Shown piece after piece: positions 1 to 12,631 of a stretch of DNA of 64,000 bases. The stretch spans positions 124,001 to 188,000 of the forward strand of contig NZ_JAFBID010000001.1 of assembly GCF_016811235.1 (NCBI RefSeq). Reading direction: 5' to 3'. Each line of letters opens with the position of its first letter. The first letter of the stretch is position 1. Source of the stretch: Microvirga arabica (lineage in GTDB: Bacteria > Pseudomonadota > Alphaproteobacteria > Rhizobiales > Beijerinckiaceae). The notes beneath the pieces are model-generated. The model worked only from the letters and a program-made list of their open reading frames with translations, did not search any database and was not told the DNA's origin. A program made the position numbers and the translations under genes.

Positions 1-619
1 GCCCGGCGACGGCCTCCTGGGCGACGCGTCCGTTATGGGGAAGGTTGTCGCACGACATCACCGTGAAGGGCGCAAGCTCCGCATCCCGCCGGCGCTTGAG
101 CGCGGCAAGGATCACGCCGAACACGCTTCTGGGCGCGTGCAGGTGAGCGGCATCGTGAAGGATGTCCGGATGCTTGGGATTGAAGGCGCCCGTGGCCGGA
201 TCGATGCAGTAGCCTCCCTCCGTGACGGTGAGGGACAGAATCCGCAGGGCCGGATCGTCGAGCGCCGCGATGATCGCGCGGCCGTCGTCTTCCACGGGCA
301 CGAAGTCGACCATCGCGCCGGTCACCCGCGCATGGTTGGCGCCGGGCTCGAGTTCCACCACAGTGGTGAGCCAGTCCTGAGACTCGAGCGCCTGCCGCAT
401 TGCCTTGTCGTTAGGGCGGATGCCCGCGCCGATCAGGGCCCAGTCGCGATCCCGTCCCGCATTGAAGAGATCATCCAGGTACACGGCCTGGTGCGCACGA
501 TGAAAATTGCCGACGCCGATGTGGAGGATGCCGGCTTGCAACTGCGCGCGCTCATAGCCCGGCTTTGCGATGGCGGGCGGCAGATCCGCGAGATGGATGA
601 GGTTCAAGGCACGGCTCAT
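1..619 (-). CDS. Mannitol dehydrogenase family oxidoreductase (5' part only, runs off the left edge)
   Basis: N-terminal ~206 residues of a long-chain polyol/hexuronate NAD-dependent dehydrogenase. The nucleotide-binding start GVGNFHRAHQAVYLDDL lies at about residues 35-51, and the family signature SCDNLPHNGR is near the window edge. The family includes mannitol 2-dehydrogenase, fructuronate reductase (UxuB) and tagaturonate reductase (UxaB); the substrate cannot be fixed from this part, and the catalytic C-terminal half is outside the window. The start is set at the ATG before SRALNLIHLADLPP. An in-frame ATG 60 bases upstream (position 679) is possible; neither has a strong ribosome binding site. 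A hexuronate role would fit the altronate dehydratase gene 15 kb away, but that is only a guess. Confidence 0.85.
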   Translation of the reverse strand, partial: MSRALNLIHLADLPPAIAKPGYERAQLQAGILHIGVGNFHRAHQAVYLDDLFNAGRDRDWALIGAGIRPNDKAMRQALESQDWLTTVVELEPGANHARVTGAMVDFVPVEDDGRAIIAALDDPALRILSLTVTEGGYCIDPATGAFNPKHPDILHDAAHLHAPRSVFGVILAALKRRRDAELAPFTVMSCDNLPHNGRVAQEAVAG

Positions 620-679
620 GGGATGGGTCTCGGTTGGCTGGATAGGGAGCTGTCGGAAGAGCGGCATCGCCTCATCCAT

Positions 680-1092
680 TGCCGTCGCCTGTAACAATGT
701 CAACGTCCCGGCCGAATGGCCGGCATTGCCGACATGGGCTTAGATCGGACCGGCACCAGCGGAGTTTCCATCGCGATCCGTGCAGCGGCTTTCTGCAATG
801 TGTTTCGCTGAATCGACCTCGACTGCACTCCCAATGGTGTATTCCCTTATTGCCCAGGCGCGGCATCCGCCGACACCATTCAAGAATCGACCATGGCTGT
901 CCTATCGTTTAGGATGCGATGCGGAGCGCAAGCGATCACTTGCGGCGGACGACTTGTTTTGCCTTGCAGCAGAGCACCGGCTCTTTTGCGCATGACCGGC
1001 AAAACAAACCGGGCTCGTTATAACGACAGCACTGCTCTGCGACGTGTGTGCGCTCCGAGGACGTCGATGCAGCTGATGGCGGGAGGCTCGCC
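680..1092. other. Divergent intergenic region with a spaced inverted repeat
   Basis: About 410 bases between the divergent dehydrogenase and binding-protein genes, with no convincing gene; the short frames here lack ribosome binding sites. Both promoters should lie here. AATGGTGT at 833-840 is mirrored by ACACCATT at 873-880, giving 8-base arms with centres 40 bases apart. This could be an operator pair or chance. Confidence 0.4.
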
Positions 1093-2196
1093 ATGGACCG
1101 AAACCTGTTGCGTCTCACAGCGGCGATCGTCTTCGCCGTGGCGAAGGTTGGCTCGGCCGGGGCTGAAATCCTCATCGGCATGGCAGGAGCCCTCACCGGT
1201 CCCAATGCCTATCAGGGCGAGCAGCAGCAGCAGGGCGTTGAGATGGCCATCGTCGACATCAACGCTGCCGGCGGCGTGCTCGGACAGCCGTTGCGTCTCA
1301 TCTCCGTCGACGATGCCTGCGACAGCGGCCAGGCCATCGCGGCGGCTCACAAGCTCGTGGCCGAGCAGGTAGCGTTCGTGGTCGGGCACCAGTGCTCGGG
1401 CGCCTCCATTCCAGCAGCCGGTGTTTACGAGCGAGCCGGCATCATCCAGATGACCCCGGCCTCGACGAATCCAAGATTGACGGAAGAGGGGCGCGCGAAT
1501 GTTTTCCGCATCTGTGGACGAGACGACCAGCAGGGCGAGATAGCCGCCGCCTATCTCGCGTCGCGAGGGCAGGATTCAAAGATCGCCATCCTCAGCGACG
1601 GCTCGATCTATGGGGATGGGATCACCAAGGAAACCCAGCGCCACCTGCGCAATCGCGGCGCTTTGGAAGCGCTGTATGACACCCTTGATCCGGGTCTGAG
1701 CGACTACTCTCCCCTGATTGCAAAGTTGCAGTCCGCCGGAATCCGGATTGCCTATTTCGGCGGATATTACCGGGAAGCCGCCATCCTGATCCGCAATGCC
1801 CGTGAACAGGGCTATGACCTGCAGCTGGTATCCGGCGACAGCATCGCGAGCGAAGCCTTCATCCAGGTTGCCGATGAGGCCGGCGAAGGAACCGTATTCA
1901 CGTCTTTTCGAGACCCGCGCCGAAATCCCGGCGCAGCCTCTCTCGTTGAGCGATTCCGACGCCAGGGATTCGAGCCCGAGGGCTACACGCTCTACAGCTA
2001 CGGTGCCGTTCAGGCCTGGGCCCAGGCGGTCACGAAAGCGGGCTCCATCCAGCCACAAGCCGTGGTGAGCGCGCTTCGGTCGCACGCGTTCGAGACCATT
2101 CTCGGGCGCATCAGCTTTGATGCCAGGGGAGACGTGCGGCAACCCGGCTTCGAATGGTTCATCTGGCGGAGTGGTCGATATGTACCTCTGGAATGA
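1093..2196 (+). CDS. Periplasmic ligand-binding protein, LivK/type 1 periplasmic-binding fold, probable sensor partner
   Basis: 367 residues with a Sec signal peptide (residues 1 to about 24, ending AGA). The mature part opens EILIGMAGALTGPNA and continues INAAGGVLGQPLRL, typical of branched-chain amino-acid/amide binding proteins of the HAAT class. The start is the ATG preceded by GGGAGG; a longer in-frame start at 1048 has no such site. No permease or ATPase gene is nearby. Instead the gene is followed after 24 bases by a membrane-bound hybrid histidine kinase. This arrangement recalls TorT-TorS, where a binding protein presents a ligand to a kinase, so a sensory role is inferred. The ligand is unknown. 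Confidence 0.85.
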   Translation: MDRNLLRLTAAIVFAVAKVGSAGAEILIGMAGALTGPNAYQGEQQQQGVEMAIVDINAAGGVLGQPLRLISVDDACDSGQAIAAAHKLVAEQVAFVVGHQCSGASIPAAGVYERAGIIQMTPASTNPRLTEEGRANVFRICGRDDQQGEIAAAYLASRGQDSKIAILSDGSIYGDGITKETQRHLRNRGALEALYDTLDPGLSDYSPLIAKLQSAGIRIAYFGGYYREAAILIRNAREQGYDLQLVSGDSIASEAFIQVADEAGEGTVFTSFRDPRRNPGAASLVERFRRQGFEPEGYTLYSYGAVQAWAQAVTKAGSIQPQAVVSALRSHAFETILGRISFDARGDVRQPGFEWFIWRSGRYVPLE

Positions 2197-2220
2197 GGAA
2201 GGGGCTCTGCCCCTGACGGC

Positions 2221-5200
2221 ATGCCTTTTCACCTGAGTGTCCGCTGGCGTCTGCTTCTTGCATTTCTCGGCATCAGCGCTTTCGCCGTGCTGGCTGCGGC
2301 TACGGGAACCTATGCCTTCCGCCAGATGGCTGCCGTGATCGAGCGGATCACGGAACAGCGCGTACCCTTCGCCCTTACCGCTCTCGACCTGTCACGACAG
2401 GCAGAACGTACCGTTGCTGCGGCGCCGACGCTTCTCACGGCCCGCTCACAGGCACAGTACAGGGAGATCTCCGCTGCCATTTCGACAGAGGTGGAACGTC
2501 TTGAAGACCTGCTGGCCCGGATCCGGAGCGAGGGTGATCCCGCGGCCGTCGCTGCCATGGAGCCTGCCGTCGCGGGATTGCGGCGCAACCTCACAGCGCT
2601 TGCCGGACTGGTAGCGGGGCGTCTCGCAGTGGGTGCACAGAAGGATGCGCTCGTCCAGCGCCTTACGAACGCAACGGTCGCCGCGCAGCGCCTGATCGCC
2701 CCTGCCCTGGTGGTTCTGGACGCAAAGTTTGCAGCCTCACGCCGCCTAGACCGCGGCGAGCAGACAACGGCCGGATTTCCGCAACCTCCTTCGGTGATTG
2801 TCCAGGAGATTGCTGAGAATCTTCTCATGCAGAAGGCGCAGCTCGAATTCGCTTCGATCAGTGACGGCCTGCTCAAGGCGTCGCTTGCCGAGAAGCCTGC
2901 CGATATCTCCGTAATGAGCTTTCCTCTCAACCGCTCCCTGGCAGCCTTGCGCCAAATCGCCTCCGAACTGGCGGACCAACGTCTGCGATCCCGATTCGAT
3001 CAGCGTATCTCCGATTTTGCTCGTTTGACCGATGGACAGGACAGCATCCTGTCCGCACGGAGAACGGAGCTCATCCTCGTGGAGGATGCTGAACGGCTTC
3101 TTGTGGAGAATGCCGGTCTTTCCGCACAACTGACACAAGCGGTCGACGGGCTCATCGCGGCGGCCCGGAACGACATCCGCGCAGCCAGCACGGAGGCCAT
3201 GACGGCACAGCGCGTCGGCCGGAGCATCCTGCTGACCGTGGTGTCCCTCAGCCTGCTGAGCTCCCTGCTGATCGTCTGGTTCTATGTCGACCGCAACCTC
3301 GTCGCGCGGCTGCAAAGCCTGAGCAACAGCATGCTGGCGATCGCCGGCGGTAACCTGCGCGCTCCTCTGCCCAAGGACGGCGGAGATGAGATCGGCCAGA
3401 TGGCAAAGGCTCTCGCGGTCTTCCGAGACACGGCCATCGAGGTCGAGGAAAAGAACCTGCGCGAGGTGGCCGATGCCCGGCAACGGCTGATCGACGCCAT
3501 CGAGAGCATCAACGAGGGCTTTGCTCTGTACGACGCCAACGATCGGCTCATCCTGTGCAACAGCCGCTACGAAGAACTCCTCTACCCTGGATCCGATGCC
3601 CCCATGGAGCCCGGAACGCCATTCGAAACGGTGATCCGGCGTGCGGCGGAGCGCGGCCTTATCCTCGAGGCGAAAGGGCGGGTGGATGCCTGGGTGGCCG
3701 AAAGGCTGGCGCGGCACAGAAACCCGGTCGCGGCCGAGATCCAGCAGCGCCAGGGTAACCGCTGGATCCAAGTGTGCGAACGCCGGATCGCGGGAGGCGG
3801 CACCGTCGCGGTCTATACCGACATCACGGAAATCAAGCACCATGCCGCGCAACTCGAACTGGCTCGCGACGAGGCCATGGCTGCCACGCGGGCCAAGAGC
3901 CAGTTTCTCACCAATATGAGCCACGAGTTGAGGACGCCGCTGAATGCGATCATCGGCATTACCGAGATGCTCAAGGAGGAGGCTGAGGAGACGGGCGACA
4001 GGCCTCTGGTCGAGCCCCTGGACAGGATCCGTCACGCGGGCACCCATCTGCTCGCCCTGATCAATGAAATTCTCGACCTCGCCAAGATCGAGGCCGGCAA
4101 GCTGGAACTCCATCCGGAGGAGGTCGATCTCCAGCTCTTGCTCCGGGATGCTGCCATGACGGCGGAGCCTCTCGCAAAGCGCAACGGCAACTCGATCAGG
4201 GTCGAGATTGCTCCGGACATCGGCCGGATGCAGACCGATCCCGTGCGCCTGCGGCAGGTTCTGCTCAATCTGCTGAGCAATGCCTGCAAATTCACCCAAG
4301 GAGGAACCGTCACGCTGAGGGCTTCCCGGATCACGGATCGGGAAGGCGACAGGATTGCGATCTCCGTCCACGACACGGGCATCGGCATGACGGCCGAACA
4401 GCGGGACAGGCTCTTCCAGGAATTCAGCCAGGCCGACAACACGACGACGCGCAAGTTCGGCGGCACGGGGCTCGGCCTTGCCATCAGCCGCCGGCTCTGC
4501 CGTCTCATGGGCGGGGACATCACGGTAGAAAGCACCGTTGGGGTCGGAAGCACGTTTTCCGTATCCCTGCCGGCAGGCGGGGTCGCCGGCCGGCCCAGGA
4601 GGCGTCCCAGCGCCGGAAACCCCTTGGCGGGTCCGCAGCCGCTCGGACGCGGGCAGCGCGCGCTGATCATCGACGACGAGCTGACATCGCGGGAGATCCT
4701 GCGCCAGATCCTGACCCGCGAGGGTTTCGACGTGGTGACGGCGGAAAGCGGCCAGGAGGGAATCGAGATCGCCCGCAGGATCCACCCGACGGTGATCACC
4801 CTGGACGTGCTGATGCCCGGCCTCGACGGCTGGAGCGCCCTCCAGCAGCTGAAGCGCGATCCCGAGTTGCAGGACATTCCCGTCATCATGGTCACCATCG
4901 TCGACGAGGAGAACCAGGCCTATGCCCTGGGAGCCGCCGCCTATCTGACGAAACCCGTCAACCGCGAGTGCCTCCTGAAGGCTCTTGCCGCCTGCCGCAC
5001 CAGCCCGGCGAACTCGCGGGTTCTGGTGGTGGAGGACGACGCACACACCCGGGGATGGCTCGCCCGGATTCTGCGCGAGGATGGATGGGAAGTGGCCGAG
5101 GCAGAGAACGGGCGGGTTGCCCTGGAGCGGCTTCCGCTCGTCCGCCCCGACATCGTCCTGCTCGACCTGATGATGCCGGAGATGGACGGCTTCGCGTTCG

Positions 5201-5418
5201 TCGATGAGATCCATCGCAAGGAGGAGACGCGGCATCTTCCCCTGGTCGTGCTGACGGCCGCCGATGTGGACGAGGAGGCCCAGCGCCGCTTGAGCGGGGG
5301 CATCCGAAAGATCCTGCGCAAGAAGCTCGGCGGCCGGGACGAGGTGATCGCCACCTTGCGGGACGTGATCGCCGATTGCCTGCGGCTCAGCCGGCCGGAG
5401 CACCAGGAGCGGGCATGA
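2221..5418 (+). CDS. Membrane hybrid sensor histidine kinase with two C-terminal receivers
   Basis: 1065 residues. Order: TM1 (about 10-30); a long mostly helical periplasmic region (about 31-332); TM2 (about 334-355); HAMP (about 356-408); PAS (about 420-538, starting at [11 protein letters not shown]); HisKA with [11 protein letters not shown] (His568); HATPase with N box NLLSNACKF (about 683-691), DTGIGM (Asp718) and GGTGLGLAI; receiver 1 with [10 protein letters not shown] (Asp862); receiver 2 with [10 protein letters not shown] (Asp982). All catalytic motifs look intact. It probably senses the ligand-loaded binding protein encoded just upstream and feeds a phosphorelay. Its stop overlaps the next start (ATGA), showing translational coupling with the response regulators. 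Layout resembles TorS, except that there are two receivers and no Hpt domain is apparent. Confidence 0.93.
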
Positions 5419-5792
5419 CCAGAATTCTTTATGTCGAGGACAACGAGGACAATGTCTACATGCTGACCCAACGCCTGACCCGGCATGGCTTCACGGTCAG
5501 CATCGCGTCGGACGGCGCTCAAGGAATCGACATGGCGCGCCGGGAGAAGCCAGACCTGATCCTGATGGATCTCAGCCTGCCGGCTCTCGACGGCTGGACT
5601 GCGGCCCGGCAGCTGAAGCAGATGCCGGAGACGAAGGACGTTCCCATTCTGGCTCTCTCCGCGCACACGATGCCGGGAGACCGGGAAAAGGCGCTGGACG
5701 CCGGCTGCGACGACTACGATGCGAAACCCATCGATTTCGAAAGGCTTCTTGAGAAGATCGATGCCCTGATCCGGACGCGGGGCGCTCCATGA
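5415..5792 (+). CDS. Single-domain response regulator (CheY/DivK-like)
   Basis: 125 residues, a lone receiver: acidic pocket VEDNED, phosphoacceptor Asp52 in LILMDLSLP, Ser/Thr in ALSAH and Lys in DAKPID. The [12 protein letters not shown] start is characteristic of DivK-like receivers used as phosphorelay intermediates. The start is the ATG overlapping the kinase stop; a longer frame from 5376 would run back into the kinase gene. Its own stop overlaps the start of the receiver-cyclase gene. No output domain is present, so it likely passes phosphate on or binds a partner. Confidence 0.9.
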
Positions 5793-6835
5793 CCGATGCC
5801 GGGGTGCGCATCCTCGTGGTGGATGACAACGAGGACAACCGCTACACGCTGACGCGCAGGCTGCAGCGGGAGGGGTGGATGGATCTGACCACGGCCGAGA
5901 ACGGGCGCGAGGCGCTCGACCGCATCGCCCGGGAGCGCTTTGACCTCGTCCTTCTCGACATTATGATGCCCGAGATCAACGGCTACGAGGTCCTGAGGCA
6001 CCTCAAGACGGATCCATCCACGCGCGACATTCCGGTTCTGATGATCTCCGCCCTGTCGGAGTTCGAGAGCGTGGTCCGCTGCATCGAGCTCGGAGCCGAG
6101 GACTACCTGCCAAAGCCCTTCAACCCAGCGCTGCTGCGGGCACGCGTGGGAGCCTGCCTCGAGAAGAAGAGGCTGCATGACCAGGAGCTCAGCTATCTGG
6201 CCGAGATCGACCGCCAGCGGCGGCGGGCCGAGGCTCTCCTCCATGCGATTCTGCCCTCGCAGGCCGTGGACGAACTGGAGCAGTTTCAAACCGTCACACC
6301 CCGCCGTCATGACGACGTAGTGGTGTTCTTCGCCGACATCGTGGGGTTCACGGCCTATTGCGACCTCCTCGCGCCGGAGGTGATCGTCGCGAACCTTCAC
6401 GTCTACGCCTCGACCTTCGAGGATATCGCCTCGCAGCACGGCCTCGAGAAGATCAAGACGGTCGGCGACGGGTTTCTCGCCACGGCCGGCCTGCTCCTGG
6501 ACAATCCGGATCCGGTGATGGCCAGCATCGCCTGCGCCATGGCGACCATCGCCTCCGCCCGCATCCTGCCGCTGCCGTGGGATGTGCGCGTCGGCATCCA
6601 TGTGGGCCCGGTCGTGGCCGGAGTCGTCGGGCGGCAGAAGTTCAGCTTCGACATCTGGGGTGACACAGTGAACGTTGCCGCACGGCTCGCCGGATATGGG
6701 AGACAGAGCGGCATCAATCTCAGCGCCGCCGCCTGGGAGCGGGTGCGCACGCGGATCGACGCCGCTCCCCTCGGGCCCGTGCCGATCAAGGGCAAGGGCG
6801 ATGTGGAAGCCTATAGGGTGTCGCCTCCCGACTAG
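5789..6835 (+). CDS. Response regulator with class III adenylate/guanylate cyclase output
   Basis: 348 residues. N-terminal receiver (about 8-125, phosphoacceptor Asp57 in LLDIMMPEING), a short helical linker with basic and acidic repeats (about 130-160), then a class III cyclase domain (about 175-345). Metal-binding Asp183 sits in FFADIVGF and Asp227 in KTVGDGF; the transition-state Asn and Arg are in DTVNVAARL. The Lys in KIKTVGD suits adenine. It should make cAMP when the receiver is phosphorylated, making it the output of the upstream kinase operon. Overlap of 4 bases with the preceding gene supports one transcript. Soluble; no membrane segment. Confidence 0.92.
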   Translation: MTDAGVRILVVDDNEDNRYTLTRRLQREGWMDLTTAENGREALDRIARERFDLVLLDIMMPEINGYEVLRHLKTDPSTRDIPVLMISALSEFESVVRCIELGAEDYLPKPFNPALLRARVGACLEKKRLHDQELSYLAEIDRQRRRAEALLHAILPSQAVDELEQFQTVTPRRHDDVVVFFADIVGFTAYCDLLAPEVIVANLHVYASTFEDIASQHGLEKIKTVGDGFLATAGLLLDNPDPVMASIACAMATIASARILPLPWDVRVGIHVGPVVAGVVGRQKFSFDIWGDTVNVAARLAGYGRQSGINLSAAAWERVRTRIDAAPLGPVPIKGKGDVEAYRVSPPD

Positions 6836-6852: not shown

Positions 6853-8250
6853 TCAGATGTGGAGCTCGCGTCCGAGCGATTTCAGCGCGCTCTCCTGGAA
6901 TGCCTCTCCCTGCGTGGGATGTGCATGGATGGTGCCGGCGATGTCCTCGAGGCGCGCTCCCATCTCAACGGCAAGACCGAAGGCAGCGGAGAGTTCGGAC
7001 ACGCCCTGCCCGACCGCTTGGATGCCGAGCACCAGATGGTTGTCCGCCCGCGCCACCACGCGCACGAAGCCCTCCTCGCCGAGCTTCGTCATGGCGCGCC
7101 CGTTGGCCGCGAAGGGAAACTGGCCGATACGCACCTCGCTGCCGATCTTATGCGCTTCGTCGGGCGTCATGCCGACCGCGACGATCTCCGGATCGGTGAA
7201 GCACACGGCCGGGATGGCCCGCTTGTCCCACACCCGCTGATGGCCCGCGACGATCTCGGCCACCATCTCGCCCTGCGACATGGCCCGGTGGGCCAGCATC
7301 GGCTCGCCCGTCACGTCGCCGATGGCATAGATGCCGCGCATGGAGGTCCGGCACCGCTCGTCGATCCGGATGAAGGGTCCGTCCATGTCGAGGACGAGTT
7401 CCTCCCTGCCCCACCCCTGCGTGACCGGCCGCCGGCCCACCGTGACGAGGATCCTGTCGGCCGGAAGCGACACTTCGGATCCGTTCTCGGTTTCCACCAG
7501 AAGAGCGCTGCCGCCTTTGGCCAAACCCTTGGCTTTTGCGCGCGTCATGACCTCGATGCCCAGCGCCTGCAGCCGCTTGGACACAGGACGGGTGAGTTCC
7601 GCATCGTATTGCGGCAGGATGCGCGCCTGCGCCTCGACGACGGTGACCTTCGCGCCCATCTTGGCAAAGGCCGTGCCGAGTTCGAGGCCGATATACCCGC
7701 CGCCGACCACCACCAGCCGGTCCGGCACCGATGTGAGCGAGAGCGCCTCGGTCGAGGAGATCACGGCTCCGCCGAAGGGCAGGCCGGGGAGTTCGACGGG
7801 CGCCGACCCGGTGGCGATCACGACGCTTTCGGCGCGGATGATCTGCCGGCCGGTCTCGGTCTCCACCTCGACGGTCTTGCCGTCGCGAAAGTGCGCCCGT
7901 CCCTGCACCATCTTGACCTTGGACTTCTTGAGGAGGCCCGACACGCCGCTGTTCAGGCGGCCCACGATGGTGTCCTTCCAGGCGATGGTCTGGGACAGGT
8001 CGATCTCGGGCTGTGTGGTCCTGATCCCGAGCGGGTTCGCGCCCGATGCGAGATGAGCGATCCGGTCGTATTCCTCGGCCGCATGGATGAGCGCCTTGGA
8101 GGGAATGCACCCCACATTGAGGCAGGTGCCGCCTGGCTTTCTTTCTTCCACGATGACCGTGTCGATGCCGAGCTGCCCGGCGCGGATGGCGCAGACATAG
8201 CCACCCGGACCGGCTCCGATGACGAGGAGCTTGCAGGAGATATCCTTCAT
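6853..8250 (-). CDS. lpdA: Dihydrolipoyl dehydrogenase (E3), branched-chain 2-oxoacid dehydrogenase operon
   Basis: 465 residues. FAD-binding GAGPGGYVCA near the N terminus, redox disulfide GGTCLNVGC (Cys43/Cys48), NAD-binding GGGYIGLELG mid-chain, and the C-terminal catalytic dyad His444-Glu449 in HAHPTQGE. Reoxidises dihydrolipoamide of the E2 core with NAD+. Last gene of a four-gene minus-strand operon with E1alpha, E1beta and E2, only 4 bases after the E2 stop, so it is likely the E3 dedicated to this complex (bkdC/lpdV type). It converges with the cyclase gene with 17 bases between the stops. Confidence 0.96.
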   Translation of the reverse strand: MKDISCKLLVIGAGPGGYVCAIRAGQLGIDTVIVEERKPGGTCLNVGCIPSKALIHAAEEYDRIAHLASGANPLGIRTTQPEIDLSQTIAWKDTIVGRLNSGVSGLLKKSKVKMVQGRAHFRDGKTVEVETETGRQIIRAESVVIATGSAPVELPGLPFGGAVISSTEALSLTSVPDRLVVVGGGYIGLELGTAFAKMGAKVTVVEAQARILPQYDAELTRPVSKRLQALGIEVMTRAKAKGLAKGGSALLVETENGSEVSLPADRILVTVGRRPVTQGWGREELVLDMDGPFIRIDERCRTSMRGIYAIGDVTGEPMLAHRAMSQGEMVAEIVAGHQRVWDKRAIPAVCFTDPEIVAVGMTPDEAHKIGSEVRIGQFPFAANGRAMTKLGEEGFVRVVARADNHLVLGIQAVGQGVSELSAAFGLAVEMGARLEDIAGTIHAHPTQGEAFQESALKSLGRELHI

Positions 8251-8254
8251 AACG

Positions 8255-9580
8255 TCAAGCCTCTACGAAGATCATGGCGGGCGTCTCCAGCAGCGTCTTG
8301 ATGCGCTGCACGAAGACCGCCGCGTCCCAGCCGTCGACGATGCGGTGATCGAAGCTGGAGGAGAGATTCATCATCTTGCGCGGGATGAAGGTGGAGCCGT
8401 CCCAGACCGGCCGCACCATGATCTTGTTGACGCCCACGATGGCAACCTCCGGATGATTGATGACAGGCGTCGTCACGATGCCGCCCATCGCGCCGAGCGA
8501 CGTAATGGTAATGGTCGAGCCGCTCAGTTCCTCGCGGGTGGCAAGCCCCGCCTTGGCGGCCTCGGCGAGACGATTCAGCTCCGTGGCGCAATCCCACAGG
8601 TCCCGCGCCTCCGCGTGCCTGACGACCGGCACCATGAGGCCCGACCCGGTCTGCGTGGCGATGCCGATATGAACGCCGCCATGCTGGTGAACGACGCCCG
8701 CCTCGTCGTCGTAGATCGCGTTCAGGTTCGGCTTCTCGGCGATGGCCTTGACCATGGCGCGCATGAGGAACGGAAGGATCGTCAGTTTCGGCCGCTCTGC
8801 GCGCTTGCTCGCATTCAGGGACGCCCGCAGATCCTCGAGTGCCGTCACGTCCACTTCCTCCACATAGGTGATGTGGGGGATGCGCGACTTCGCAAGCGCC
8901 ATCTTCTCCGCAATCTTGCGGCGCAAGCCGATCACCTTAATGGCCTGGACAGATGTATCCTGAGAAAGCCCCTCTGCTCCGGCAGCCTGCGGCCCATGCG
9001 CGAGAAAGGCATCCAGATCCTCGTGCGTGATCCGCCCGGCCGGACCGCTGCCCGGAACCTGCCTCAGATCGATGCCCGCTTCGCGGGCTCTCAGTCGCAC
9101 GGCCGGGGAGGCAATCGGCTTGTCGCCTTCCATCCGCCGGGCGGACGGGCGGTGCATCCGTACGGGCGGGCTCTGCGGCGCCTCGACTGGACGAGGCTGG
9201 GGAGCCTCCTTCGCCTGCTTCTCGACGATGGCATCCGAAGTTTTCACTGCACCATCGGCCTGAGCTTCGATCTCCTTCGGCCGGGCCGGCGCTTCAGGCG
9301 CCTTGTCGGTATCACGCGCGGAGGCAGCACCCTCCTCGTCGCCTGTCTTCAGGCGGATCAGGGGCGATCCGATCGCCACCACGTCGCCGATGTCCGCGCC
9401 CAGCCATAGAACCTCGCCATCGACGGGAGAGGGAATCTCCACCGTGGCCTTGTCGGTCATTACGGCCGCGAGCAGGGCATCCTCGCGCACGAGATCGCCG
9501 ACCTTCACGTGCCACTCCACGAGTTCGGCTTCGGCGATGCCCTCGCCGACATCCGGCATCTTGATCAGGTGCTCACCCAT
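8255..9580 (-). CDS. bkdB: Branched-chain 2-oxoacid dehydrogenase E2, lipoamide acyltransferase
   Basis: 441 residues. One lipoyl domain at the N terminus (MPDVGEG... with lipoyl-Lys44 in TDKATVE), a charged Ala/Pro/Glu-rich linker, a peripheral subunit-binding domain around 165-205 (PSARRMEGDKPIASPAVRLRA), and the acyltransferase domain ending with catalytic DHRIVDGWDA (His412, Asp416). Transfers the acyl group from lipoamide to CoA. The start ATG (MGEHLIKMPD) lies one base beyond the E1beta stop; a longer frame would run into E1beta. The operon context with paired E1 genes supports branched-chain over pyruvate or 2-oxoglutarate specificity. Confidence 0.95.
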   Translation of the reverse strand: MGEHLIKMPDVGEGIAEAELVEWHVKVGDLVREDALLAAVMTDKATVEIPSPVDGEVLWLGADIGDVVAIGSPLIRLKTGDEEGAASARDTDKAPEAPARPKEIEAQADGAVKTSDAIVEKQAKEAPQPRPVEAPQSPPVRMHRPSARRMEGDKPIASPAVRLRAREAGIDLRQVPGSGPAGRITHEDLDAFLAHGPQAAGAEGLSQDTSVQAIKVIGLRRKIAEKMALAKSRIPHITYVEEVDVTALEDLRASLNASKRAERPKLTILPFLMRAMVKAIAEKPNLNAIYDDEAGVVHQHGGVHIGIATQTGSGLMVPVVRHAEARDLWDCATELNRLAEAAKAGLATREELSGSTITITSLGAMGGIVTTPVINHPEVAIVGVNKIMVRPVWDGSTFIPRKMMNLSSSFDHRIVDGWDAAVFVQRIKTLLETPAMIFVEA

Positions 9581-9581
9581 G

Positions 9582-10595
9582 TCAGGCCTCCAACGTTTCG
9601 ACGAGCGCGCGCCCGACCCGGGCCGGTCCTGGGAAGTAGTCCCATTCCTGCGCATGCGGGTAAGGCGTGTCCCATCCCGTCACGCGGGCAATCGGCGCCT
9701 CGAGCTGGAAGAAGCAGGCCTCCTGGACGAGGGATGCAAGCTCCGCCCCGAAGCCGGAGGTGAGCGTCGCCTCATGGACGACGACGCAGCGGCCCGTCTT
9801 CTTCACCGATGCCACGATAGTCTCCATGTCGAGGGGAAGCAGGGTGCGCAGGTCGATGATCTCCGCATCGACGCCCGTTTCCGCCGCAGCCGCCTGCGCG
9901 ACATACACCATCGTGCCGTAGGCCAGCACCGTGACGGCCGCTCCCTCGCGCACGATGGATGCCTTGCCGAGCGGAAGCGTATAATGGCCGTTCGGCACCT
10001 CGCCGAGATCGTGCTTCGACCAGGGCGTGATCGGGCGGTCGTGGTGACCGTCGAAGGGGCCGTTATAGAGACGCTTCGGCTCCAGGAAGATCACCGGGTC
10101 GGGATCTTCGATGGCTGCGATCAGGAGGCCTTTGGCATCGTATGGGTTTGACGGCACGACGGTTTTCAATCCGGATACGTGGGTGAACAGGGCTTCGGGA
10201 CTCTGGCTGTGGGTCTGGCCTCCGAAGATCCCGCCGCCCGTCGGCATACGGACCACGAGCGGACAAGTGAACTCGCCGTTCGAGCGGTAGCGCAGACGCG
10301 CCGCCTCCGACACGATCTGGTCATAGGCCGGATACATGTAATCGGCGAACTGGATCTCGATGCAGGGGTGCAGCCCGTAGGCCGCCATTCCGATGGCCGC
10401 GCCCACGATGCCGGCCTCGTTGATCGGGGCATCGAAACACCGGGTCTTGCCGTATTTCTGCTGCAGGCCCGCCGTGCAGCGGAAGACGCCGCCGAAATAG
10501 CCCACATCCTCACCGAACACCACGACGCGTTCGTCGCGCGCCATCATCACATCCATCGCATCGCGGATGGCTTCGATCATCGTCATGCGTGCCAT
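9582..10595 (-). CDS. bkdA2: Branched-chain 2-oxoacid dehydrogenase E1 beta subunit
   Basis: 337 residues, full length for the transketolase-like E1 beta family. Shows the conserved start MTMIEAIRDAMD, VFGEDVGYFGGVFR, the loop GVFRCTAGLQ and ITPWSKHDLGEVP; C-terminal transketolase domain with VVVHEA. With E1 alpha it decarboxylates 2-oxoisovalerate, 2-oxoisocaproate and 2-oxo-3-methylvalerate with TPP and acylates the E2 lipoyl group. Starts three bases after the E1alpha stop. Confidence 0.95.
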   Translation of the reverse strand: MARMTMIEAIRDAMDVMMARDERVVVFGEDVGYFGGVFRCTAGLQQKYGKTRCFDAPINEAGIVGAAIGMAAYGLHPCIEIQFADYMYPAYDQIVSEAARLRYRSNGEFTCPLVVRMPTGGGIFGGQTHSQSPEALFTHVSGLKTVVPSNPYDAKGLLIAAIEDPDPVIFLEPKRLYNGPFDGHHDRPITPWSKHDLGEVPNGHYTLPLGKASIVREGAAVTVLAYGTMVYVAQAAAAETGVDAEIIDLRTLLPLDMETIVASVKKTGRCVVVHEATLTSGFGAELASLVQEACFFQLEAPIARVTGWDTPYPHAQEWDYFPGPARVGRALVETLEA

Positions 10596-10598
10596 GGA

Positions 10599-12631
<2,033 letters not shown>

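What the first reader, a model, noticed from the sequence alone, without database searches (positions are those of the whole stretch)
1093..6835. Binding protein, hybrid kinase, receiver and receiver-cyclase in one operon: a candidate periplasmic ligand-to-cAMP relay
The sequence shows four tightly packed genes; the last three overlap by 4 bases. The first codes for a LivK-fold periplasmic protein with no transporter genes around it. The kinase has a large periplasmic domain and two intact receivers, and the final gene is a receiver joined to a class III cyclase with intact Asp183, Asp227, Asn and Arg. TorT-TorS is the nearest known pattern, but it ends in a DNA-binding regulator, not a cyclase. 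The inferred path is ligand, binding protein, kinase, receivers, cAMP.
Basis: partly seen in the sequence, partly recalled or inferred. Interest (0 to 1): 0.68.

Follow-up and report, generated by a model that had tools for sequence, protein, structure and literature searches.

The report
Binding-protein-gated cAMP signalling operon
A soil-bacterium operon appears to link a small-molecule-binding protein outside the inner membrane to production of the messenger cAMP inside, through a kinase and a receiver-cyclase, and relatives carry the same kind of binding protein and sensor wired straight to a cyclase.

Summary
Four co-directional genes (1093-6835) encode a LivK-type periplasmic binding protein (SBP), a hybrid kinase (TorS-type sensor, HAMP, PAS, HisKA, HATPase, two receivers, no HPt), a single-domain receiver, and a receiver-class III cyclase with its catalytic and ATP-selecting residues. 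The operon is conserved under purifying selection in 14 of 48 genomes of the genus (matched to Microvirga). Four of the 14 have lost the stand-alone receiver while the other three genes stay constrained, so it is not an obligate relay step. The strongest new evidence is rewiring in relatives: a LivK-type SBP gene sits beside a one-chain receptor with the same kind of sensor-HAMP-PAS fused directly to a class IIIb-like cyclase (five loci, four genera; a sixth locus has another SBP). All 22 loci with a close version of this sensor have an SBP gene next door, from three SBP families, and 19 of 22 have a cyclase output. The receiver-cyclase core also recurs with other sensors (Tll0287-like, H-NOX, DctP, SBP_bac_1). 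SBP-to-cAMP is the best explanation (0.65); binding, phosphotransfer, sign and ligand are untested. New variant of a known kind.

The parts
1093..2196 (+). periplasmic solute-binding protein, LivK/Atu2422 type (Peripla_BP_6), 367 aa, Sec signal peptide about residues 1-24
   Evidence: signal peptide read by eye
2221..5418 (+). hybrid histidine kinase, 1065 aa: TorS-type sensor, HAMP, PAS_7, HisKA, HATPase_c, REC, REC; no HPt match
2311..3225 (+). periplasmic sensor domain (residues 31-335), TorS_sensor_domain family, presumed SBP docking site
   Evidence: PDB 3i9w TorS is the best hit of the family profile, E 5.9e-5
3892..4098 (+). HisKA, phospho-accepting His568
4663..4986 (+). kinase receiver 1 (D862, K911)
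5017..5328 (+). kinase receiver 2 (D982, K1034, no proline after the lysine); limits approximate
5415..5792 (+). single-domain response regulator (D52, K104), overlaps both neighbours by 4 bp; deleted in 4 of 14 orthologous operons
5789..6835 (+). receiver-class III (IIIa-like) adenylyl cyclase, 348 aa
5810..6148 (+). receiver domain of the cyclase (D57, K109)
6299..6820 (+). class III cyclase catalytic domain: metal D183/D227, adenine K223/D288, transition-state N295/R299 (roles recalled)
542..1092 (+). intergenic region upstream of the SBP gene (limits approximate; neighbour divergent); the 500 bp before the SBP start show several blocks conserved among nine sequences; no Crp-like palindrome in the window with up to one mismatch

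Best explanation
A ligand, most likely an alpha-amino acid or a relative such as proline or GABA, is captured by the LivK-type SBP. The loaded (or empty) SBP docks on the TorS-type helical periplasmic domain of the kinase dimer. The signal passes through HAMP and PAS and changes autophosphorylation of His568. Phosphate goes directly to Asp57 of the receiver-cyclase and changes cAMP synthesis. The two kinase receivers and the stand-alone receiver act as sinks, competitors or tuners rather than obligate relay steps, since the operon has no HPt and one receiver is dispensable. SHOWN: gene content, residues, conservation, selection, loss of one receiver, repeated linkage of SBP, sensor and cyclase in two architectures. 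INFERRED: docking, phosphotransfer route, cAMP rather than cGMP, ligand class, sign of control.
For: (1) SBP, kinase and receiver-cyclase adjacent in 14 of 48 genomes of the genus, which are all 14 with a close orthologue of the sensor; dN/dS 0.04-0.18. (2) Rewiring: a LivK-type SBP gene beside or just upstream of a one-chain sensor-HAMP-PAS-cyclase in L204, L277, L278, L286 and L241. SBP about 56% and sensor-PAS about 52% identical to the window's in L277 and L278. The fused cyclase has Thr in place of Asp288 and is 28-30% identical to the window's in L204, L277, L278 and L286, so a cyclase output seems to have been recruited separately to this kind of input. (3) 22 of 22 loci with a close version of this sensor (E <= 1e-20) have an SBP gene next to it, from Peripla_BP_6, DctP or SBP_bac_3; 19 of 22 have a cyclase output. 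(4) The sensor belongs to the TorS family, whose solved complexes include ones with the SBP TorT (titles of 3o1h, 3o1i, 3o1j). (5) SBP and sensor similarity track each other over 10 pairs with kinase, chemoreceptor-like or cyclase outputs (Mantel r 0.58, p 0.0005; 9 pairs r 0.55, p 0.0025). (6) K223/D288 fit ATP as substrate.
Against: Neighbouring SBP and kinase genes can be unlinked in function: AgtB and PA0602 with AgtS, and PA4985 with AruS, showed no binding (PMC11113362). No interaction could be modelled here: the single-sequence model of the sensor has pLDDT 60.7 and no fold match at E <= 0.001. The Pfam TorS match is under its cut-off in L278, L238 and L241. Weaker homologues of the sensor (E 1e-8 to 1e-14) are mostly chemoreceptor-like with no SBP seen within 1.5 kb: 1 of 6 has one. 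The TorS-sensor survey gave a Pfam-confirmed SBP neighbour in only 10 of 30 loci inspected (1.5 kb flanks). The 22 loci are not independent; I count six or seven arrangements. The receiver-cyclase core also occurs with quite different sensors, so SBP input is not a property of the core.
Confidence: 0.65

Rival explanations
1. The SBP serves an amino-acid ABC transporter encoded elsewhere, or scavenges, and the kinase senses something else (membrane state, or a ligand bound directly to the helical domain). The operon is co-expressed but the SBP is not part of the signal path.
For: The SBP is a LivK/Atu2422-type binding protein; published adjacent pairs without binding (PMC11113362). I did not look for the genome's own liv transporters.
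Against: An SBP gene is adjacent in 22 of 22 close sensor loci and the SBP family switches with the receptor (Peripla_BP_6, DctP, SBP_bac_3); no permease or ATPase gene noticed beside the operon, mostly by eye.
Confidence: 0.15
2. The kinase mainly drives another output through the stand-alone receiver or an unlinked HPt. The receiver-cyclase is modulated by a different kinase or mainly acts as a phosphate sink.
For: Two receivers on the kinase and a free receiver give several phosphate destinations; in two relatives the downstream genes are HPt and receiver-HAMP-EamA instead; some receiver-cyclases have no window-like kinase beside them (L178, L185, L186).
Against: The free receiver is deleted in 4 of 14 operons while kinase and cyclase stay constrained (dN/dS 0.07-0.10 in three pairs within that clade); the kinase-receiver-cyclase order recurs in several other alphaproteobacterial families.
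Confidence: 0.12
3. The product is cGMP, or the cyclase is regulatory and inactive.
For: Class III domains include guanylyl cyclases.
Against: Lys223 and Asp288, the adenine-selecting pair, and the metal and transition-state residues are invariant in the 17 aligned sequences (roles recalled).
Confidence: 0.05

Closest known systems
TorT-TorS-TorR (TMAO sensing)
   Same: separate periplasmic binding protein plus hybrid kinase with a TorS-family helical sensor
   Different: SBP is LivK-type, not the Peripla_BP_1/4 type seen beside the strong TorS match L208; no HPt; output is a receiver-cyclase, not a DNA-binding regulator (TorT and TorR features recalled); TorS equivalog score 411.1 against cut-off 676.5
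CheY-AC response regulators (architecture named in PMC1183210, passages read)
   Same: receiver joined to an adenylate cyclase domain
   Different: here linked in an operon to an SBP-type input; the receiver-cyclase architecture itself is not new
SBP-controlled diguanylate cyclase/phosphodiesterase receptors (receptor type named in passages of PMC11113362 and PMC9602780; the name NspS-MbaA is recalled)
   Same: binding protein controls a second-messenger receptor
   Different: c-di-GMP instead of cAMP; no kinase in between (recalled)
Atu2422 of Agrobacterium (GABA-responsive SBP per a PMC11113362 passage; linked to PDB 3ip5 and relatives by recall)
   Same: closest solved SBP, E 2e-97; GRDDQQG and SGD stretches are shared
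   Different: a Phe of the solved chain 3ip5 aligns with Gln100 here, invariant in 14 orthologues (that it is pocket residue Phe77 is recalled); Atu2422 works in transport (recalled)

Membership tests
TorT-TorS-TorR system | TorS-type periplasmic sensor domain | tested here: met
   PF21689 30.2 bits over cut-off 27, matching residues 49-154 only; family profile hits 3i9w TorS in PDB, E 5.9e-5
TorT-TorS-TorR system | TorT-type binding protein | tested here: not met
   SBP is Peripla_BP_6; Peripla_BP_1/4 not among its matches; that TorT is of that type is recalled
TorT-TorS-TorR system | HPt domain on the kinase | tested here: not met
   no Hpt match; second receiver instead
TorT-TorS-TorR system | DNA-binding response regulator | tested here: not met
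   partners are a single receiver and a receiver-cyclase
TorT-TorS-TorR system | TorS equivalog score | tested here: not met
   TIGR02956 411.1 bits, cut-off 676.5
class III adenylyl cyclase | two metal Asp, Asn/Arg pair, Lys/Asp adenine pair | tested here: met
   D183, D227, N295, R299, K223, D288 invariant in 17 sequences
class III adenylyl cyclase | makes cAMP | not testable with these tools
   needs enzyme assay
receiver-cyclase response regulator (CheY-AC) | intact receiver fused to class III cyclase | tested here: met
   D12, D13, D57, S87, K109 present; Pfam REC 103.2 bits and Guanylate_cyc 128.5 bits
SBP-gated receptor system | SBP gene linked to the receptor across relatives | tested here: met
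   14 of 14 operons; 22 of 22 close sensor loci; but 1 of 6 weaker sensor matches
SBP-gated receptor system | SBP binds the receptor domain | not testable with these tools
   no complex prediction offered; single-chain model of low confidence
LivK ABC-transport binding protein | score over the NCBIfam LivK-type cut-off | tested here: not met
   NF011933 318.2 bits, cut-off 477
LivK ABC-transport binding protein | linked permease and ATPase genes | tested here: inconclusive
   none noticed beside the operon, neighbours read by eye and five run against NCBIfam; the rest of the genome was not searched for them

The most novel reading that the evidence does not exclude
Alphaproteobacteria have a class of SBP-gated adenylyl cyclases: one kind of periplasmic SBP/TorS-type sensor input that evolution has wired to cAMP at least twice, once as a one-chain receptor cyclase (class IIIb-like) and once through a kinase and a receiver-cyclase (class IIIa-like), with the binding protein exchangeable between unrelated families.
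Probability: 0.55. Interest if true: 0.75.

Novelty: new variant of a known kind. Interest (0 to 1): 0.6.

Why it matters
Some rhizobia carry dozens of adenylate cyclases (37 in Bradyrhizobium japonicum, 28 in Sinorhizobium meliloti by the PMC1183210 table), and the stimuli of most are, to my knowledge, unknown. The examples of receptors activated by binding proteins in the passages I read of PMC9602780 and PMC11113362 are chemoreceptors, sensor kinases, diguanylate cyclases/phosphodiesterases and protein (Ser/Thr) kinases; adenylyl cyclases are not among them. If true, this gives a defined ligand entry point for bacterial cAMP, testable with a soluble binding protein, and a natural comparison of direct versus kinase-mediated wiring of one kind of input.

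Tried and rejected
Structure of the sensor: single-sequence AlphaFold2 gave an all-helical model with pLDDT 60.7 and pTM 0.41. Foldseek found no match at E <= 0.001; TorS chains appear at ranks 5-7, 14, 15 and 21, but so do unrelated helical bundles. Inconclusive.

It gave a few useful named loci (L078, L080, L120) but no count.

Ligand from the neighbourhood: the convergent E3-E2-E1 2-oxo-acid dehydrogenase cluster suggested branched-chain amino acids, but the best E1 alpha match is below its cut-off and of pyruvate-dehydrogenase type, so I do not use it. Crp-like sites: none in the window with up to one mismatch. Promoter and terminator scans are near chance level. The paper on the Atu2422 pocket (PMC2943279) is not held, so residue roles are recalled.

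Considered and rejected: chance adjacency; membership in TorTRS; free receiver as obligate relay.

Full report
OBSERVATION. Four + strand genes lie at 1093-2196, 2221-5418, 5415-5792 and 5789-6835, with a 24 bp gap and then two 4 bp overlaps. Pfam gives Peripla_BP_6; TorS_sensor_domain-HAMP-PAS_7-HisKA-HATPase_c-REC-REC; REC; REC-Guanylate_cyc. Phosphoacceptor aspartates, lysines, His568 and the named cyclase residues are present and invariant in the orthologue alignments. The one blemish is receiver 2 of the kinase, where the lysine is not followed by proline.

ORGANISM. The window lies in an unnamed 6.67 Mb genome. A 3,001 bp stretch of a Microvirga calopogonii contig (L120) is 100% identical to a genome of the same genus group (G021), so the genus is taken as Microvirga. 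The species of the window is not known to me.

DISTRIBUTION OF THE OPERON. Among 101 genomes searched with the receiver-cyclase, 23 had a match at E <= 1e-60, 24 matches in all. In the window and 13 other genomes the SBP, kinase and receiver-cyclase are adjacent in the same order. A search of the 48 genus genomes with the sensor domain finds the same 14 plus two more distant loci in genome G007. Orthologue identities to the window are 72-90% (SBP), 76-94% (kinase) and 82-96% (cyclase). dN/dS between the window and seven of the relatives is 0.04-0.18. The convergent E3 gene downstream is found in 13 of 13 fetched relatives, in two of them (L064, L066) further away and cut by the end of the stretch, so the locus is mostly syntenic.

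A NATURAL KNOCK-OUT. In four of the 14 operons (G011, G026, G006, G013; L057-L060) the stand-alone receiver is missing. The gap of about 85-121 bp holds short remnants of it, judged by eye, and the best receivers elsewhere in these genomes are only 35-38% identical. SBP, kinase and cyclase show dN/dS of 0.07-0.10 in three pairs within this clade. The free receiver is therefore not an obligate step, which favours direct transfer from kinase to cyclase receiver.

SAME INPUT, DIFFERENT WIRING. In G007 (Microvirga) a LivK-type SBP (41% identical) lies head-to-head with an 811 aa protein, TorS_sensor-HAMP-PAS_7-Guanylate_cyc (L204). In G704, G626 and G1140, of another family of the order, an SBP about 56% identical to the window's precedes a one-chain sensor-HAMP-PAS-cyclase whose sensor-PAS part is about 52% identical to the window kinase (L277, L278, L286; for L286 the cyclase was seen by tblastn only). 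In G107 two contigs carry the same receptor type, one after a LivK-type SBP (L241, cut by the contig end) and one after an NMT1-type SBP (L238). So five loci in four genera have the LivK-type pair with a one-chain cyclase, and a sixth locus has NMT1. In L278, L238 and L241 the Pfam TorS match is under the cut-off; there the relation rests on alignment to the window sensor. The fused cyclases of L204, L277, L278 and L238 have Thr at the position of Asp288, and those of L204, L277, L278 and L286 are 28-30% identical to the window's, so the cyclase seems to have been acquired separately. A further G007 locus has three DctP SBPs divergent from a TorS-sensor kinase, a receiver and a receiver-cyclase (L205).

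HOW OFTEN IS AN SBP NEXT DOOR? At E <= 1e-20 I have 22 sensor loci: 16 in the genus, five more in 397 genomes of the order, and G784 from 398 genomes of the phylum. All 22 have an SBP gene adjacent; 19 have a cyclase output. Two (L290, L291) have HPt and a receiver-HAMP-EamA protein, and for one (L287/L289) I saw only the kinase. These reduce to six or seven independent arrangements. Of six weaker matches, one (L281, the same gene as in L182, DctP SBP) has an SBP; for five chemoreceptor-like genes none was seen, by eye. In the wider TorS_sensor survey (49 matches in 28 of 190 genomes) I inspected the 30 loci given: ten have a Pfam-confirmed SBP neighbour (the window is one), L224 is marginal, L215 had no match, and 18 were judged by eye to have none. 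Over ten SBP-sensor pairs with Peripla_BP_6 proteins, SBP and sensor similarity correlate (r 0.58, permutation p 0.0005; nine pairs 0.55, 0.0025). I chose those pairs from loci already known to have an SBP, and shared ancestry contributes to the figure.

SAME OUTPUT CORE, OTHER SENSORS. The kinase-receiver-(HisKA-)receiver-cyclase core also follows Tll0287-like genes (L073, L075, L080, L174, L176, L184, L187), an H-NOX gene (L074), an SBP_bac_1/8 gene with a Tat-like signal (L067, L068), sits with a DctP gene in another gene order (L182), or has a GAF kinase (L078). Class-wide, 15 of 385 genomes, the window's included, have the receiver-cyclase at E <= 1e-65; in L178, L185 and L186 no window-like kinase was found beside it. 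The output core thus looks like an interchangeable cAMP module, and the window shows its amino-acid-type SBP version.

MECHANISM. Best reading: SBP with ligand docks on the TorS-like domain, HAMP-PAS relay, His568, Asp57 of the cyclase, cAMP. The SBP's closest solved relatives are 3ipc/3ip5 (Atu2422 by recall). Orthologues keep the amino-acid-binding region, with Gln100, aligned to a Phe of 3ip5, invariant; pocket roles are recalled. Hence an amino-acid-like ligand with a polar contact is my guess. Sign and ligand are open.

KNOWN OR NEW. Receiver-cyclases (CheY-AC) were named in 2005 (PMC1183210, passages). The examples of SBP-activated receptor types in PMC9602780 and PMC11113362 (passages) do not include adenylyl cyclases. 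My ten paper searches listed 12 to 20 papers each; no listed title or opening of an abstract was on this operon or on an SBP-gated adenylyl cyclase. Longer result lists were not seen, and subscription papers are mostly not held. I file it as a new variant of SBP-coupled two-component signalling, not as a member of TorTRS.

Noticed in passing
L290:5809-7298 (+) and L291:2268-3794 (-): After an SBP_bac_3 gene, a TorS-like-sensor hybrid kinase and an HPt gene comes a receiver fused through a HAMP-like stretch (25.1 and 24.7 bits, cut-off 25) to an EamA transporter: possibly a phosphorelay-gated transporter. In L290 the frame is split into two overlapping ORFs.
   Followed up: partly
L070, L073, L079, L080, L182, L184: These distant receiver-cyclases carry an N-terminal HisKA-like region with two repeats. 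By eye, in five of the six (not L079) the first repeat has lost the phospho-accepting His while the second keeps an HDLRTP-like motif; Pfam, run on L070 and L073, shows no ATPase domain.
   Followed up: partly
L073, L075, L080, L174, L176, L184, L187; L074: The same kinase/receiver/receiver-cyclase core follows Tll0287-like genes (a family reported as NO-binding in PMC12889525, passages read) in seven loci and an H-NOX gene in one, which suggests gas-to-cAMP versions.
   Followed up: partly
window 6853-11831 (-): Convergent E3-E2-E1beta-E1alpha 2-oxo-acid dehydrogenase cluster; E3 lies downstream of the operon in 13 of 13 fetched relatives; substrate class unclear.
   Followed up: partly
L057-L060 between kinase and receiver-cyclase genes: Short remnants of the deleted stand-alone receiver.
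   Followed up: yes
G000, whole genome: Roughly two dozen class III cyclase domains in the genome, by matches to the catalytic part of P0004.
   Followed up: no
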